Made by a program: the position numbers and the translations under genes. Under the pieces are notes generated by a model, which searched no databases, was not told the DNA's origin, and was given only the letters and a program-made list of their open reading frames with translations. This document shows, one piece after another, positions 28,014-40,127 of a stretch of 64,000 nucleotides of DNA. The number at the start of each line of letters is the position of its first letter. Position 1 is the first letter of the stretch. This DNA comes from an uncultured Thiodictyon sp. (GTDB lineage: Bacteria > Pseudomonadota > Gammaproteobacteria > Chromatiales > Chromatiaceae), in NCBI RefSeq assembly GCF_903946935.1, contig NZ_CAJAXH010000015.1:1-64000 (forward strand). The letters run 5' to 3'.

Positions 28014-28047
28014 AAAACGCCCCGCGGCAGTTGCCTGCCGCGGGGCG
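28012..28047 (-). terminator. Intrinsic terminator for leftward transcription
   Basis: A 13-bp perfect stem (CGCCCCGCGGCAG at 28018-28030, its complement at 28035-28047) with a TTGC loop is followed on the minus strand by six T. It therefore ends transcripts arriving from the right. There is no T-tract on the plus-strand side, though it may still cap the TldE-type transcript. Confidence 0.75.
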
Positions 28048-32261: not shown

Positions 32262-35200
32262 TCATTGCAACGTGGTCGGCACGGCCGGCATATTCCCCGT
32301 CGACCAGAGTTCCCCTTCGATATAGTCCTTCAGCGACGCTATGCTCGGCTCGGTCAATTGATCGAACCAGGATAGGTGCGCCCGCCCCACCTTCGCATCC
32401 TCCTGCACCAGCAGATAGTGCCAGGGCTCCGCATCGTGGCTGGCGAGTAGTGCGGCATAGCGCTGCCCGGCCCTGGCCTTGGCCGCGTCGCGCTCATCCA
32501 GGCGGCCCTTTACCTCGACGATCAGGTTATGGAAATGCCCGGCCCAGCGCACCCGCAACACGAAGTCCGGGTAGTAATGGGACAGTTGGCCCTGCCAGTC
32601 GTATTCGATGCGCAGACCCACCCCCTGACGGTGGTTATAGAGCCACCCGATCAAGTCCGGACAGCGTTCCGCCAGGACGGCGAAGCGCAACTCGTCCGCG
32701 CTGTCGAAGGCACCATTGCGAAAAACGCTCTTCTGCGTGTGTTCCAATTCATGCTGCTTGCGCGCCGGATAGGCCTTGAGGTCCGCGCCTCGCACCTCGC
32801 GCAGCTCCGCCACCCGCTCGGTCAGCCGCCCGGCAATCGCCTCGCGCAAGGGTGCGCGCAGGGTATCACGCACCCGCGCGATGACCTCCGGTCGCAACAG
32901 GTTGCACAGCGCAATGCGCCCGCTCTCGGGACCGGCCTCGATCGCCCGGTCAAATGACAGCGGCAGCCCCAGTGGCAGTCGGAAGGTGCGCCGTTCCAGC
33001 GCCTCCTTCACTACCGCCTTGACCGCATTCATATGGATGAAGGCGGCCTGGATATCGCGCAACAGCGGGACGGCATAGGCGACCTCGATGACCTGGTCAT
33101 AGTCCTTGAAAGAGGGCGCGGCGGACAGGGTGAAATGCTGGCCATCGGCATCCTCTGCCTGCATGGCCTCGCGCAGATAGGTCTGCACCTCCCGGTCATG
33201 GAAGTCTTCCACCCAAGGCAGGCGCTGCGTGGCTGGTGTGTCCGCGACCCGAAATCCCGCATGCCAGTCCGCCAGCCGCTCCCGCTCGCCCAGGAAATAG
33301 ACGAAACGTACATCGCGGGCCGCCCGCTCTTCGGCGGATTCCAGTGGCTCGATCCGTACATATTCGGGCACATGAACGATCTTGTCGGGATCGCGCACCT
33401 CCACGATGTCCTTGATCTCCTCAATGATGGCGTCGAATGAGGGATGCTGCATGACATACAGTTCCTCCTTCGCCGCCGTCACCGCCCCGTCCTCGTCCAG
33501 CGCCGAGGGGTGCATCCGCCGCAGCCCGCGGCCCAGGGTCTGCTCGGTCAAGGTGCGGCTGTCGCAGGAACGCAGCGGGACGATGACCTTGACGTTGCGC
33601 ACGTCCCAGCCTTCTTTGAGCATCATCACGCTGACGACGACATTGAATGGATTGGGCAGCCGCCGCCGTTCGCCCCGCTCATCCAGTGCGTTCTGGTCGG
33701 GGTCGGGCATCTCGTCGTGGTCCACCGCGTTGACCGCGGCCCGCACCTTCTGCCAGTCCGCGTCGTTCTTTTCTTCCTTGGCGCCGATATGGATCTGAAT
33801 CACTGTGGAGCGGGGGATGCCGTCTGCATCCGGCTCCACGAAGAGCCGCTCCTGCGTCTGTGGGTCAAGCCAGCCGGTGACGGCACGGGTGCCGGTCAGG
33901 TCCTGCCGCGACGCCTCCCCATAGGTGAGGAAGTTCGCGATCTCCTGCCCCTCGTTGCGGTCGGCGCAGAGCAGGAACAGGATTGGCTTGCGCGTATCGC
34001 CTTCGCAGCGGAGTTGATCGCGCACCCGCCGCCAGCGCCCGATCCCGGCGCGCAGCAGTGGCTGGTACTTGAGCCAGGCGTCGGGCTGATTGGCGAGCAC
34101 CACCTCGCCCGCGGCCCCATCCTTACCCGTCACCTTCACCCGCTCCAGCACCGGGTGCTTGACCACGCCGTCGGCGATGGCCTCGCGCAGCGGATAGTCG
34201 ATGACGGTGTGGCGGAAAGGTCGCGGCGTCCGCGCCTTGACGGATTTGGCCTTGGTCGCCCCGCCTTCCTCCTCATACAGGGTCGCCGAGAGGTCCACTT
34301 GCAGCCCCAGGCCGCAGCGCTGATGCAGGGTGCGCAGACTACGGACCCACGCCATGGATTCGGGCTCCTCCCCATTGCCCATCCCCACCGCGCGCTTGTT
34401 GGCCGCCGTCTTCTCAAAGCGCTGATGGGCCGGCTCGTCGCCCACATGGTGGGCCTCGTCATTGATGACCAGGAACCCGGGGCCGCGGCGCAGCCGCGCG
34501 ATGAGCGGGGTGCACTCGGACTCCAGTCGCTTGGGCTCCGGGGTCTCGAACAGCAATTGCATCTGCCGGCCGCCGGACGACTGGGGGCCTGGCCAGGGCG
34601 GCGGCGGTTCATCCACCCGCAGCAGTTGATGGATATTGGTCACGATCAGGGCCGGCTCGGTGGGGTCCAGGCGCTGCGGCACCGTCTCCGGACCATAGAC
34701 CGGCAAGTGCCAATCCGGCTCCAGGATGGGCGGGATCACCGGATCGGCGCGGAACACGCTGGGTCTGTCCTGGGGAAAAAAGTCGAATAGCAACCGCTCT
34801 TTCACAAAGAGCCCGGGGGCGATCACCAGCACCTGCGGACCGAGATCCAGATGTTCTGTTCCCTCCCGCAGTGCGTTGAGCGTCGACCAAGCGATCAGCA
34901 GGCTCATGATCTTGGTCTTGCCCGAGCCGGTGGCGAGTTGGCCGCCGAGCTTTGGCCAAGGGTCCACGCCGGTGAAGCCCCGCTGTTCCCCGAACCGGTC
35001 ATAGAGCCCGTCGACGTTGCGGACGCCCAGGACCTCATGCAGATAGATCAGGGTCTCCACACAGCGGCGCTGGTGCGGCCAGTAGCGGAAGCGGGTCAGT
35101 CCGCCCTCTGAACCGTCGCGGGCGAGGGTCGGCAGTTCATGGGGCAGGGCGCGGAACCAATGCTGCAACAGGATCAGCGTGGTCTCGGACACCGGCTGTT

Positions 35201-35330
35201 CGTCGTCGCCCACCGGTACATAGGCGCCCGGCTGGGTCCAGGCCTCGCCGGCGCGGCCCAAGGCAAAGCCGCGCCAGGCATCGACCCGGGCGCCGATGCG
35301 CGCAATCAGTGCTGGTTGCTCCGCCGTCAT
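32262..35330 (-). CDS. Type III restriction enzyme Res subunit (helicase-nuclease)
   Basis: This 1022-residue protein starts at the ATG overlapping the mod stop (ATGA). Superfamily 2 helicase motifs are seen: ATGSGKT at 133-139, DEAH at 291-294, LSATLYEEEGG, and RGLRRMHP as motif VI. The C-terminus carries a PD-(D/E)XK nuclease: YPDF (Pro921-Asp922) and VEVKG (Glu939, Lys941). It translocates and cleaves DNA in complex with the Mod subunit. All key residues appear intact, so it is probably functional. Confidence 0.92.
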   Translation of the reverse strand: MTAEQPALIARIGARVDAWRGFALGRAGEAWTQPGAYVPVGDDEQPVSETTLILLQHWFRALPHELPTLARDGSEGGLTRFRYWPHQRRCVETLIYLHEVLGVRNVDGLYDRFGEQRGFTGVDPWPKLGGQLATGSGKTKIMSLLIAWSTLNALREGTEHLDLGPQVLVIAPGLFVKERLLFDFFPQDRPSVFRADPVIPPILEPDWHLPVYGPETVPQRLDPTEPALIVTNIHQLLRVDEPPPPWPGPQSSGGRQMQLLFETPEPKRLESECTPLIARLRRGPGFLVINDEAHHVGDEPAHQRFEKTAANKRAVGMGNGEEPESMAWVRSLRTLHQRCGLGLQVDLSATLYEEEGGATKAKSVKARTPRPFRHTVIDYPLREAIADGVVKHPVLERVKVTGKDGAAGEVVLANQPDAWLKYQPLLRAGIGRWRRVRDQLRCEGDTRKPILFLLCADRNEGQEIANFLTYGEASRQDLTGTRAVTGWLDPQTQERLFVEPDADGIPRSTVIQIHIGAKEEKNDADWQKVRAAVNAVDHDEMPDPDQNALDERGERRRLPNPFNVVVSVMMLKEGWDVRNVKVIVPLRSCDSRTLTEQTLGRGLRRMHPSALDEDGAVTAAKEELYVMQHPSFDAIIEEIKDIVEVRDPDKIVHVPEYVRIEPLESAEERAARDVRFVYFLGERERLADWHAGFRVADTPATQRLPWVEDFHDREVQTYLREAMQAEDADGQHFTLSAAPSFKDYDQVIEVAYAVPLLRDIQAAFIHMNAVKAVVKEALERRTFRLPLGLPLSFDRAIEAGPESGRIALCNLLRPEVIARVRDTLRAPLREAIAGRLTERVAELREVRGADLKAYPARKQHELEHTQKSVFRNGAFDSADELRFAVLAERCPDLIGWLYNHRQGVGLRIEYDWQGQLSHYYPDFVLRVRWAGHFHNLIVEVKGRLDERDAAKARAGQRYAALLASHDAEPWHYLLVQEDAKVGRAHLSWFDQLTEPSIASLKDYIEGELWSTGNMPAVPTTLQ

Positions 35331-37906
35331 TGGCCCACCTCCACGTCCACCAGGCTGATTCCGTCGTTGCCGAAGACATCCGTCACCCGGGCGGCGATCT
35401 GGTAACGGCCGGGCTGGGCATAGCGGCACTCGGCCGTCAGCACCAGCGGATCGACCCGGCCCTTGCCGCGACGGATGCGGAAGCTCTGCCAATCGGTATC
35501 GAACACCGGCCGCCCGTCCGGGCCGATATGGTCCGCATAATCCCAGTCGATCGCCCAGAAGTCGACGAACTGCTGCCAGGTATTGGCTCGCTCCAGCCAT
35601 TCCAACAGCACCGCCCGGCGCGCCTGCCAGCGTGCCTGTTCGGCCACGGCCTTCTTGCGCTGGGCGGGCGCGAGGCTGTCGGTTACGGGCTTCAACGCCG
35701 GCTGCTGACTCAGCAGGAAGCTCTGCACGTCTACCTCGCAGCGCTCCAGGCAGAGCTTCACCAGCGGGCCATCCACCTGGGCGGTGAGGCCGATGGCGAG
35801 CGGGGTATAGAAGGCCGGCACCGCCATCGACTCGATGGCCCCGTCGGCGGCGGCCCCGCGTTTCAATCGCAGGGCCACCTGCTCGATGGCCGCGTTGGGG
35901 ATGATGCGCAGCGTGACCTGCACACCGGTCTGCGCCCGGATGTCCTCGCGCTCCGGGTGCGGCAGGGTATCGAGGTCCGCCGAGAGGATGGTGACAAAGT
36001 GGGTATCGGTCTGCGCCGCTTCGCGGGCAATGCCCCAGGCCTGACGCATCGGCACCGGGGCATCCAGCGGCCCCACATGAATCCAGCCCCGGTGGTCACG
36101 CCCATGCAGCAGCGCGAAGCCGGAGACCGGCTCACCGCCGAAGACCCGGATCATCTCCGGGCGCCAGGCGGCGGGCTCACCGGCGGCGGTCAGCCAGGCC
36201 TCGGCGCGCAGATAGACCCCCATCGACTCCACCGAGAAGGGTCGCACCGCATAGGTGCCCGGGCTGCGCTGCTTCTTCGGCTTGCGTTCGATGTTGCCGC
36301 AGTGGTCGCATTCGACATAGTCGTGCTGTTCCTTGGCCGGCGGGCGGGGTTGGCCCTGGAGTTGGATCAGCCGCTTGCGGGCCAGGTGGACGGCATACTT
36401 GCCGTTGTCGATACCGATCCAACGCCGCCCCAGGCGTTCGGCCGCCTCCGCGGTGGTGCCGGAACCCATGAAGCAGTCGAGGACCAGGCCGCCCGGGGGG
36501 CAGGAGGCGGAGATAATGCGCTCAAGGAGGGCGACCGGTTTTTGGGTGGGATAGCCAAGCGACTCCGTCGCTTGGCTATTGATCGTATTAACATCGGTCC
36601 AGATATCCTGCGTCGGTACGCCGGTCATTTCATCCAGAAAACGCTTATAGCGTGGGGTAGCGCCCGGACTCGGTTGTACGACACGTCCCTCGGCGATCAG
36701 ACGGTGCATCCTTTCTTCCGAAAACCTCCAGTATTTCTTGTGACCAAAGACTTCATAGTAAGGATTTCCCTTGGCAGCCGAAGAACCGCCGGGTGCGTTC
36801 AGATCGCCAAGCTGATAGCGGCGGCCAGTCTCGTCTATTAATGAGTAATGACTGCGTATATAGTCTCCGGAGTAGGCAGAATAGATTTGATTCGCATAGC
36901 GACTCTCGGTGATGCCATAGATCAAGATGACGTCGTGAATCCTGCCGAAATGGGCGGCACCTTGACCAGCGTCTCCATGGGAGGTTTGCCGTTGCCAAAT
37001 CACTTCATTAATGAAATTTTCGTACCCGAAAATTTCATCCATCAGCACCTTGACGTAGTGTGCCGCATGCCAATCCAAGTGTACATAGATGCTCCCGCTC
37101 GGTGCCAGCAGTTCCTTCAAGAGCTGAAGCCGCGCCCGGATCATCGACAGAAAGCTGTCGAGCCCTTCGCGCCAGGTGTCCTTATAGGCGAGTATTTCAA
37201 CCAGCGACGGTTCCTTGACCGCCGCGACGCCGGCCTCACCATCTACGTCGATGCTGATGGAGTTGTCCGCCACAAAGTCGCTGTTGACCATGAAGGGCGG
37301 GTCGATATAGATCAGGTCGACCTTGCCGCGGTAACGCCAGTCACGGGTCAGGGGGTCCCGCTCCTCCAACAGGGTCTTGAGCGCCACCAGGTTGTCATTG
37401 GTCCAGATCAGCCGGTTGACCGGGGCGCGGCTATCGGCGCGGGCCTTGGCGGCGCCCAACCCTTCCAACTCGCCCTGGCGCTCATCGCGACGACTGGCAA
37501 GCCCCGGGCTCACCACCTCCAGCACCTGGGTTGGCACCCCGGTGATCGCCGGGCGTGCCTGCATCCCCTGCCAGGCGAGACGCGGCCGGCGCCGCGGCAC
37601 CTCGCATTGGAGCCAGTCGCCGCCGCTGCCCTGGCCCGCCGCCGCCAGCAATGCGGCGCGTGCCTGCGCTTGTGTCTGCTCACCACCGGCCGCCGCCGGC
37701 AACCCGAGGCGGGTGCAGGCGAGCCGTAGGGAGTCCTCGCCTAACTGGTCCAGCACCTGCGTCAGGCCCGGCCGCCCCGGAGCGCTCAACAGCGCCTGGA
37801 GTACCCCCATGGCCGTGCGCGGCACCGGGCCGATCGCCAGCGCCTCACCCAGGCGTAGCAGGTCGGTCTCGGTGGCCGAGCCCAGTAATGTGTCCCAAAT
37901 CTGCAT
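35327..37906 (-). CDS. Type III DNA methyltransferase Mod subunit
   Basis: This 859-residue adenine methyltransferase has beta-class motif order: DPPF at 202-205 before FMGSGTT at 479-485. It sets the recognition site for the Mod-Res complex. About 160 N-terminal residues precede the catalytic core. A CDHCGN segment lies after it, and the C-terminus ends in a beta-rich domain (PGRYQIAARVTDVFGND). The segment from about 36580 to 37010 is visibly more AT-rich than the rest and is bracketed by two perfect hairpins. It is the first gene of mod-res. Confidence 0.92.
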   Translation of the reverse strand: MQIWDTLLGSATETDLLRLGEALAIGPVPRTAMGVLQALLSAPGRPGLTQVLDQLGEDSLRLACTRLGLPAAAGGEQTQAQARAALLAAAGQGSGGDWLQCEVPRRRPRLAWQGMQARPAITGVPTQVLEVVSPGLASRRDERQGELEGLGAAKARADSRAPVNRLIWTNDNLVALKTLLEERDPLTRDWRYRGKVDLIYIDPPFMVNSDFVADNSISIDVDGEAGVAAVKEPSLVEILAYKDTWREGLDSFLSMIRARLQLLKELLAPSGSIYVHLDWHAAHYVKVLMDEIFGYENFINEVIWQRQTSHGDAGQGAAHFGRIHDVILIYGITESRYANQIYSAYSGDYIRSHYSLIDETGRRYQLGDLNAPGGSSAAKGNPYYEVFGHKKYWRFSEERMHRLIAEGRVVQPSPGATPRYKRFLDEMTGVPTQDIWTDVNTINSQATESLGYPTQKPVALLERIISASCPPGGLVLDCFMGSGTTAEAAERLGRRWIGIDNGKYAVHLARKRLIQLQGQPRPPAKEQHDYVECDHCGNIERKPKKQRSPGTYAVRPFSVESMGVYLRAEAWLTAAGEPAAWRPEMIRVFGGEPVSGFALLHGRDHRGWIHVGPLDAPVPMRQAWGIAREAAQTDTHFVTILSADLDTLPHPEREDIRAQTGVQVTLRIIPNAAIEQVALRLKRGAAADGAIESMAVPAFYTPLAIGLTAQVDGPLVKLCLERCEVDVQSFLLSQQPALKPVTDSLAPAQRKKAVAEQARWQARRAVLLEWLERANTWQQFVDFWAIDWDYADHIGPDGRPVFDTDWQSFRIRRGKGRVDPLVLTAECRYAQPGRYQIAARVTDVFGNDGISLVDVEVGQ

Positions 37907-38266: not shown

Positions 38267-38761
38267 ATGTCCTTGAATCGTATCGATGCCATCTTGACGG
38301 ATGAGCAACGCGATCAGGCCAGGGTTGCCTTGAGCCGCCTGACCGAGGCGTTACCCCTCCTCATCGACCTCAGCCCGAAAGAACGCGCTGAAAGCGTCAA
38401 GTTCGGAGAAAAAAACCGGTCCTTCGTCGCCAAGGCGCTAGCCATCGCGGAGGGGCATCCGGAGATGCTCCCGGCCAGCTTCAATCTGGCGCAGTTCCGC
38501 TGCGACGCGGACCTGGTCGAGCAACTGTATCCATTGTTGTCTGGCGTCGAAGTCCTGTATGGCAAGCTGCAGGACACCTATTTCGCCGCCGGCAGCGATG
38601 CCTTCGCCGCCGCGCTGGCGGTCTATCAGTACACCAAGATCCACAATGAGACCACTGGTGCCTTGGAAGATAGCCTGAACGATCTTGGCCGCCGCTTCGT
38701 CCACAAGGGCAAGAAGGCAGCCCCTCTCGCCGCGGTGGAATCTCCAGTCCTTCCCGCCTGA
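38267..38761 (+). CDS. Conserved-looking protein, unknown function
   Basis: This 164-residue, mostly helical, soluble protein starts at an ATG with GGAGG 9 bases before it; an ATG seven codons earlier overlaps that site. Codon use is typical of the chromosome. Segments such as LSRLTEALPLLIDLSPKERA and VYQYTKIHNETTGALEDSLN suggest helical bundles. No family is recognised. The strong ribosome-binding site and leader hairpin suggest a well-expressed gene. A 510-bp tandem array begins about 150 bases after its stop. Confidence 0.7.
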   Translation: MSLNRIDAILTDEQRDQARVALSRLTEALPLLIDLSPKERAESVKFGEKNRSFVAKALAIAEGHPEMLPASFNLAQFRCDADLVEQLYPLLSGVEVLYGKLQDTYFAAGSDAFAAALAVYQYTKIHNETTGALEDSLNDLGRRFVHKGKKAAPLAAVESPVLPA

Positions 38762-39551
38762 CGGCGGCGGCCGGATGGTGACAGTGCCCGGCGCGGCATG
38801 ACGCGCCGGGCCAGCATAGGCAGGCGCGGTGCGCGTCACTGCAAGGTCCAGCCCCAGCCCTAAGCCCTTGATGCCTGCCCGGGGACCATCCACCCCGGAG
38901 ATCGACCGATGGTTTCGCCAGATAGAGCGATCCATGACGAGGTATCAAGGATGGATGTTGGTGATCGGGCGATCCATGTTGCGCATACAACGATGGATGC
39001 TGGAGATAGGACGATCCAGGTTCGAGATGCGACGATGGATGCCGGAGATAGGGCAATCCATGATCGGACGGACAATGCCGGATGCTGGAGAGAGGACGAT
39101 CCATGTTTGAGATACAACGATGGATGTCGGAGATAGGACGATCGATGATTCAACGGACAGCGATGGATGCCGGACATCGGGCAGCGACTGCCGGAGATAG
39201 GACGATCCATGTTGGGACATCCAACGCCGGGTGCCGGAGATAGGACGGGCTATCTCAGACATGCAACGACGGGTGCCGGAGATAGGACGATCCATGTTGG
39301 GACATCCAACGCCGGGTGCCGGAGATAGGACGGGCTATCTCAGACATACAACGACGGGTGTCGGAGATGGGGCGATCAAGGGCGGGACATCCAACGCCGG
39401 ATGCCGGAGATACGATGCACCTAACCACTGGGGGCAACCCGTCGCGGCCGGGGGGCCGCTCCTACAAGGGGTAGGCGCGGTCCCCCGGCCGCGACGGGCG
39501 TACGCGCGCGGATCAGCGTTGTGATGCCGCTTAATCTCTGGCGCGGGAAAT
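38762..39551. other. Non-coding region dominated by a tandem array
   Basis: This 790-base region between two convergent genes consists mainly of the 42/43-bp tandem array (38908-39417). After it, GTCGCGGCCGGGGG (39443) and CCCCGGCCGCGAC (to 39497) form another inverted pair, possibly a transcript end. Open frames here run through the repeats and are not considered genes. Confidence 0.6.
38908..39417. repeat. Tandem array of 42/43-bp degenerate units
   Basis: About twelve units of alternating 42 and 43 bases share the core GATGGATGCCGGAGATAGGA followed by CGATCCATGTTG and ACAAC. Near the right end an 85-base double unit occurs twice in succession (39193-39277 and 39278-39362) with only two or three differences. 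Within a unit CCATGTTG and CAACGATGG can pair as a bulged hairpin. The mixed 42/43 period breaks any reading frame, so it is not coding. Confidence 0.9.
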
Positions 39552-40127
39552 CTACTGCCCGATCGCCTGACCGGCGATGGCCTTGATCGCCGGGTTTTCC
39601 ATCAGGCGCTGGGCGCGTGGGTTGTTGCGCAGTGCCTCCACATTGCCGGACATGATCAAGCGGGTGAACTCCGGGTCGGCGAGTGCCGCCTGGACGTCCG
39701 GGTCGCTCTGCAGGCGGGTGACGGCCTCCATGGTTTGCGGGTTGCTCAACAATTGCTGCTGGATGGCCGCGAGGTCGGCGGCCTGCGGGTTGGTGCCGGA
39801 GCCAGCGCTGGAGGCGGGCGCCGCGGTGGCGGGCGTGGCTGCCGTCGCGCTGGGCGCTGCGCCGGCGCTCGCCGGCCGGATGGCGAGCACCTCCGACTGG
39901 GGGATCGTCATCTCACCCAGGGCGGTGCTGCGCACGCGGTAGCCGCCATTCCCGACCCCGATCAACTCGCCGGTGATGACGCTGCCGTCGCGCAGTTCGA
40001 TCCGGTTCTCGGCGGCGCCGACCAGGCCGGCGCCCAGGATGAGTAAAGCGTACAGCGCAGACAGGGGCGCGCGGGCGCGCCGCGCACGCCACCGCGTGCT
40101 GTCGTGAGTAACCGGCTGATGAGCCAT
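39552..40127 (-). CDS. Secreted protein with STI1-like C-terminal domain
   Basis: This 191-residue protein starts at an ATG with GAGG 7 bases upstream. It has a basic N-terminus and a signal peptide (PLSALYALLILGAGLVGA). Next comes a small beta domain (RIELRDGSVITGELIGVGNG, YRVRSTALGEMTIP), then an Ala/Pro/Thr linker, and finally an STI1-like helical domain (NPQTMEAVTRLQSDPDVQAA, EALRNNPRAQRLMENPAI). STI1 domains bind hydrophobic clients in co-chaperones. An envelope chaperone or scaffold role is inference. Confidence 0.8.
   Translation of the reverse strand: MAHQPVTHDSTRWRARRARAPLSALYALLILGAGLVGAAENRIELRDGSVITGELIGVGNGGYRVRSTALGEMTIPQSEVLAIRPASAGAAPSATAATPATAAPASSAGSGTNPQAADLAAIQQQLLSNPQTMEAVTRLQSDPDVQAALADPEFTRLIMSGNVEALRNNPRAQRLMENPAIKAIAGQAIGQ

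What the first reader, a model, noticed from the sequence alone, without database searches (positions are those of the whole stretch)
36551..37038. AT-rich mosaic segment in mod bracketed by perfect hairpins
Within the methyltransferase gene, bases about 36580-37010 are clearly more AT-rich than the rest. The segment is flanked by a 13-bp perfect inverted repeat (ATAGCCAAGCGAC, 3-base loop, 36551-36579) and a 12-bp one (ATGAAATTTTCG, 4-base loop, 37011-37038). The segment lies between motifs DPPF and FMGSGTT, where recognition regions of beta-class enzymes can vary. Domain swapping by recombination would change specificity.
Basis: partly seen in the sequence, partly recalled or inferred. Interest (0 to 1): 0.5.

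Follow-up and report, generated by a model that had tools for sequence, protein, structure and literature searches.

The report
Swapped recognition domain in DNA methyltransferase
The AT-rich stretch is the DNA-target-recognition part of a restriction-system methyltransferase, a module known to be exchanged between related genes; the two hairpins at its edges are real but peculiar to this gene and apparently not needed for the exchange.

Summary
In detail: both perfect hairpins sit at the stated bases, and the stretch between them is AT-rich (third-position GC 0.54 against 0.82 in both catalytic flanks). It encodes residues 300-443 of an 859-aa beta-class adenine methyltransferase (35327-37906, minus strand), between the DPPF block and YPTQKP/FMGSGTT: the target recognition domain (TRD). 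The exchange idea is supported. Against its closest relative, L032, the flanks keep 81-84% nucleotide identity and the TRD 47%. Clearest, two sister alleles (L032, L036) drop from 97.2% to 52% at one point. The window TRD is closer to TRDs of distant Mods (49-51%) than to those of its own flank-siblings (31-48%). The AT dip is not special to this gene: 93 of 112 relatives have it. The hairpins are not a conserved device: 0 of 114 and 1 of 118 relatives have them, and the L032 junctions lie about 60 nt outside them. TRD exchange in type III mod genes, with a low-GC recognition domain, is published (PMC3311624). New member of a known kind; why two hairpins sit at both junctions stays unexplained.

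The parts
35327..37906 (-). mod: 859-aa beta-class adenine DNA methyltransferase with long N- and C-terminal extensions
   Evidence: Pfam N6_N4_Mtase 1.4e-42 over residues 196-510; translation P0001; 80% identical full-length relative L003/L032
36578..37009 (-). AT-rich target recognition domain, residues 300-443
   Evidence: GC3 0.54 against 0.82 in flanks; 47% nt identity to L032 against 81-84% in flanks; lies between the conserved blocks ending at residue 298 and starting at 452
36551..36579 (.). perfect 13-bp hairpin over NSQATESLGY; straddles the 3' junction of the TRD
   Evidence: unique in genome; in 0 of 114 relatives; win-L035 change point 36556, interval 36560-36553
37011..37038 (.). 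perfect 12-bp hairpin over DEIFGYENFI, at the last conserved residues before the TRD
   Evidence: unique in genome; 11 of its 12 pairs in L036 only, 1 of 118 loci; win-L036 change point 37011, interval 37015-37004
37292..37303 (-). DPPF block (motif IV), residues 202-205
   Evidence: invariant in 10 aligned sequences; motif name recalled
36536..36553 (-). YPTQKP block (motif X), residues 452-457
   Evidence: TQKP in 42 of 45 rows, the other 3 gapped; motif name recalled
36452..36472 (-). FMGSGTT block (motif I, cofactor binding), residues 479-485
   Evidence: F479 and G481-T485 invariant in 10 aligned sequences; motif name recalled
32262..35330 (-). partner restriction gene (helicase-nuclease, 1022 aa), start overlapping the mod stop
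   Evidence: NCBIfam NF046055 228.7 bits, below its cut-off of 800; PADLOC REase_III 9e-17; 81% identical to L032 res over residues 1-1004

Best explanation
The segment is the target recognition domain of a type III-like restriction-modification methyltransferase. Such domains are exchanged between mod genes by homologous recombination in the conserved catalytic blocks on either side, which replaces the recognition module and leaves the catalytic frame and the partner restriction enzyme in place. The AT-rich composition is the usual make-up of these modules, not the mark of one recent import. The hairpins are by-products: the 5' one is an older feature of the conserved flank (shared with L036), favoured by a codon-symmetric conserved peptide; the 3' one arose where flank and module meet, perhaps made perfect by a template-switch mutation. 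Shown: place of the segment, breakpoints, family-wide AT shift, non-conservation of the hairpins. Inferred: homologous recombination as the route, change of DNA specificity, template switch.
For: L032 against L036: 97.2% identity over about 210 nt, then 52% from 37098 (interval 37101-37098); L032 against L035 on the other side 53% to 89% at 36491. Window against L036 86% to 52% at 37011; against L035 50% to 86% at 36556. The window TRD is closest to TRDs of distant Mods, L153 and L154 (51% and 49%, their N-flanks 45% and 37%), while flank-siblings L032, L033, L034, L044 with 77-92% N-flanks have TRDs at 43, 48, 40 and 31%. Flank data strongly reject grouping the window with L033+L008 (p 1e-88) or L032 with L009+L100 (p 8e-60), the groupings seen in the TRD tree. 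Other variable stretches of the gene are not AT-rich: GC3 0.80-0.87 in the four non-TRD 30-codon windows under 75% identity.
Against: No donor with a near-identical TRD was found; the best is 51%. TRD data alone do not reject window+L032 (p 0.53) or window+L032+L033 (p 0.47) as clades, and reject the five-gene clade only at p 0.045; the tested groups were named after the trees were seen. All alleles are from different species or metagenome bins; the L036/L035 gene is split, probably by a multi-copy element. Specificity was not measured.
Confidence: 0.86

Rival explanations
1. No exchange: the TRD simply evolves fast in place under diversifying selection, and relaxed codon selection lets it drift to AT.
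For: TRDs of the close clade align end to end at 31-48%; the TRD tree does not reject window+L032; the AT shift is family-wide.
Against: The change from 97.2% to 52% within a 4-nt interval in L032/L036; closer TRD kin in distant Mods; other variable parts of the gene keep GC3 0.80-0.87.
Confidence: 0.1
2. The two hairpins are working recombination sites: they extrude, are cut, and start repair against an incoming mod allele, so that the TRD is swapped between them.
For: Both lie at the TRD junctions; window-L036 and window-L035 change points fall in or at the end of them; two such hairpins together came up in 0 of 4000 synonymous permutations.
Against: Absent in 114 of 114 and 117 of 118 relatives and from the L032, L033, L034, L044 and L035 mod genes at arms of 9 or more, though these too have different TRDs; the L032 junctions are about 60 nt outside; arms of 12-13 bp are short for cruciform extrusion (recalled).
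Confidence: 0.04
3. The hairpins are mobile or repeated elements, or uptake signals like those found beside the recognition domain of modA (PMC3311624).
For: Uptake sequences flank the variable domain of modA in Neisseria and Haemophilus (PMC3311624, section 13 read).
Against: Each hairpin occurs once in the 6.0-Mb genome with up to 3 mismatches; the 13-mer arm of the first occurs only at its own two arms.
Confidence: 0.01

Closest known systems
modA DNA recognition domain (DRD) exchange in type III systems of Neisseria and Haemophilus (PMC3311624; abstract, passages and section 13 read)
   Same: Conserved 5' and 3' mod parts around a variable central recognition domain; en bloc replacement; inter-species sources; DRD of lower GC than both flanks (reported for modA12).
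   Different: Different Mod subfamily (859 aa with long extensions) in a GC-rich gammaproteobacterium whose nearest named relatives are Chromatiaceae/Lamprocystis; phase-variable repeats were not searched for in mod; no uptake-sequence-like repeat at the junctions.
Target-recognition-domain movement in Helicobacter pylori restriction-modification systems (PMC3077401, PMC3983042; search listings with start of abstract only)
   Same: Specificity modules move between methyltransferase genes.
   Different: Those reports include movement between positions within type I specificity subunits; here replacement at one position.
Quasipalindrome template-switch mutation (PMC7202029, PMC8604942; search listings with start of abstract only)
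   Same: A known route by which imperfect inverted repeats, also in coding sequence, become perfect.
   Different: Here only inferred for hairpin 1 from two residues (T447, S449) not shared by its close relatives; no ancestor sequence was tested.

Membership tests
Beta-class amino-methyltransferase | DPPF catalytic block upstream of the recognition region, and FxGSGTT cofactor block downstream of it | tested here: met
   Pfam N6_N4_Mtase 146.5 bits against cut-off 26.7; DPPF 202-205, FMGSGTT 479-485 conserved
Type III restriction-modification | mod gene with sequence kinship to solved type III Mod subunits | tested here: met
   6k0w Mod 2e-19 and EcoP15I Mod 4zcf 1.7e-16; PADLOC MTase_III 4.1e-66, though MTase_II is the top hit at 8.9e-72
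Type III restriction-modification | adjacent res gene with helicase and nuclease domains | tested here: inconclusive
   REase_III 9e-17 covering residues 563-639 only; Pfam ResIII 21.4 bits, below its 22.5 cut-off; NF046055 228.7 against 800
Type III restriction-modification | asymmetric target methylated on one strand | not testable with these tools
   needs methylome data
Exchangeable TRD/DRD as in modA | conserved flanks with abrupt loss of identity in the recognition domain | tested here: met
Exchangeable TRD/DRD as in modA | same recognition domain found en bloc in mod genes with different flanks | tested here: inconclusive
   Best TRD kin 51% (L153), none near-identical
Exchangeable TRD/DRD as in modA | phase-variable simple repeat in mod | not tested
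   mod was not scanned for simple repeats; the tandem repeat scan covered 38400-39700 only
Hairpins as conserved recombination sites | present at the same place in exchanging relatives | tested here: not met
   0 of 114 loci (YPTQKP site), 1 of 118 (ENF site)

The most novel reading that the evidence does not exclude
The paired palindromes at both TRD junctions are an active, lineage-specific device (or the scar of one): palindrome-provoked breaks or template switches at the edges of the recognition module help it to be replaced in this lineage (the 5' hairpin is also in the Lamprocystis allele L036).
Probability: 0.05. Interest if true: 0.5.

Novelty: new member of a known kind. Interest (0 to 1): 0.22.

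Why it matters
It is a clean further case of specificity-module exchange in a type III-like methyltransferase, outside the pathogens where it was worked out. The side result may be of wider use: at third codon positions the recognition domain is AT-shifted against its own gene in 93 of 112 relatives and in 34 of 34 whose flank GC3 is 0.7 or more (not corrected for relatedness). So a GC dip alone should not be read as a recent import, and it can help to delimit the recognition domain from sequence.

Tried and rejected
Hairpins as repeats or mobile palindromes: rejected by genome counts. Hairpins as conserved RNA or DNA structure: rejected by absence in relatives. A close TRD donor: not found in 93 relatives (whole protein), 369 genomes of the class, 210 of the order or viral contigs (2 weak loci); whole-protein searches gave only matches under 60% in plasmids (1143 of 1143 records) and in phages 546 of 549. 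AlphaFold2 model of the whole mod: too poor to use (mean pLDDT 56); no fold search was made. A motif-regex version of the GC3 test kept only 28 of 115 reading frames (TRD lower in 26 of 28) and was replaced by the alignment-based one, which left out duplicate TRDs and rows with under 50 TRD or under 100 flank codons. The automatic long-ORF caller mislabels the two mod hairpins (it prefers shadow frames), so its coding/noncoding labels are not used. Paper searches; the NCBIfam name BPTD_3080 has no paper in the library.

Full report
What is there. The two hairpins are at the stated coordinates and perfect. They lie inside an 859-aa reading frame on the minus strand, 35327-37906, an N6/N4 adenine methyltransferase with kinship to solved type III Mod subunits. 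A helicase-nuclease gene follows with overlapping start (32262-35330); it matches type III restriction models only in part. The segment between the hairpins is residues 300-443, between the block ending ENF (residue 298) and YPTQKP (452-457), FMGSGTT (479-485): the place of the target recognition domain (TRD) in beta-class enzymes (motif order recalled).

Composition. GC falls from 0.64-0.73 to about 0.5. At third codon positions the TRD has 0.54, against 0.82 in both catalytic flanks and 0.84-0.87 in the N- and C-terminal parts. From the flank's own codon choice for the same amino acids one would expect 0.77; observed 0.53. Other variable stretches of the gene keep 0.80-0.87. The same dip is in all six aligned relatives that cover the TRD wholly or in part (TRD GC3 0.44-0.70), and in 93 of 112 relatives overall; in 34 of 34 with flank GC3 of 0.7 or more; after amino-acid matching in 90 of 112. 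These rows are not independent of one another. So the dip is a property of TRDs in this family.

Exchange. Against L032 (Chromatiaceae bacterium ppb02, apparently the same contig as in G004) the flanks keep 81-84% nucleotide identity and the TRD 47%. The strongest case does not involve the window: L032 and L036 (Lamprocystis) share 97.2% over about 210 nt and then 52%, the change placed within 37101-37098; over the whole 1020-nt match the pair has 92.9%. On the far side L032 and L035 change from 53% to 89% at 36491 (interval 36492-36484). Window-L036 and window-L035 change at 37011 and 36556. For more distant pairs (L033, L034, L044) change points near the same places may only mirror protein conservation. 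The window TRD is 51% identical to that of L153 and 49% to L154, whose N-flanks are 45% and 37% identical; its flank-siblings L032, L033, L034, L044 have TRDs at 43, 48, 40, 31%. Trees of 40 rows (39 different) put the window TRD beside L033 and L008 and the L032 TRD beside L009 and L100; flank data reject both groupings. TRD data reject the five-gene flank clade only at p 0.045 and do not reject window+L032 or window+L032+L033, so the tree evidence is supporting, not decisive; the breakpoints are.

Hairpins. They are not chance in the plain sense: in 4000 synonymous permutations of residues 270-480, arms of 12 or more arose at the first site twice, at the second 39 times, two together never. 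Ten Markov simulations of the window gave one hairpin with arms of 12 or more in all, against five in the window; 217 kb of this genome hold 12. But they are not conserved: 0 of 114 relatives at the first site, 1 of 118 at the second. That one is L036, which shares 11 of 12 pairs and the flank up to the junction. So the 5' hairpin belongs to the conserved flank and appears to be older than the difference in TRD; its peptide EIF-GY-ENF (E 36, I 35, F 44, G 42, Y 29, E 32, N 38, F 37 of 45 rows) is codon-symmetric, which favours a palindrome. The 3' hairpin straddles the junction: one arm over LGY of the flank, one over NSQA on the TRD side. T447 and S449 complete it; none of L032, L033, L034, L044, L035 has either, though S449 is the second commonest residue (8 of 45) and T447 is in 3 of 45 in the wider set. 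A template switch that perfects an imperfect palindrome (PMC7202029, PMC8604942, starts of abstracts seen) would do this, but no ancestor was tested. The L032 junctions (37098, 36491) lie about 60 nt outside both hairpins, so exchange in this gene family does not depend on them. Folding energies are strong, yet without conservation a role in RNA is unsupported.

Known ground. Exchange of the recognition domain of type III mod genes, from other species and en bloc, with conserved flanks and a lower GC of the domain, is reported for modA of Neisseria and Haemophilus (PMC3311624: abstract, passages and section 13 read). There uptake sequences flank the domain; here the flanking hairpins are single-copy. 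The present case is a new member of that kind in another Mod subfamily. I found no paper in the library on a family-wide AT shift of recognition domains with the one search made for it (best 10 of 102 listed), which does not show that none exists.

Verdict. Open: why two rare hairpins stand at both junctions of one gene.

Noticed in passing
L035:1-110 and the end of L036 (G006 contigs C572, C582): The Lamprocystis mod gene is split inside its TRD; the first 110 bases of L035 match 12 places in that genome, so a multi-copy element probably sits in the recognition domain. A start like MSNEWLNDARKIP read on its minus strand looks like an IS630-type transposase (recalled, not searched).
   Followed up: partly
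38920-39412: Degenerate tandem repeats of about 42-43 and 85 bp with GC skew up to 0.30.
   Followed up: no
32262-32313: The window restriction gene departs from L032 and L033 after L032 residue 1004 and lacks their last 115-120 residues; the third gene of the L032 and L033 operon (L032:9945-10553) has no match in the window.
   Followed up: partly
G007:C1:5593042-5593209 and G005:C201:16146-16289: Only the N-terminal residues (1-56 or 9-56) of this mod occur at 79-84% identity in two genomes of the genus: remnants, or an N-terminal domain used elsewhere.
   Followed up: no
28018-28047: Another perfect 13-bp hairpin with a 4-nt loop.
   Followed up: no
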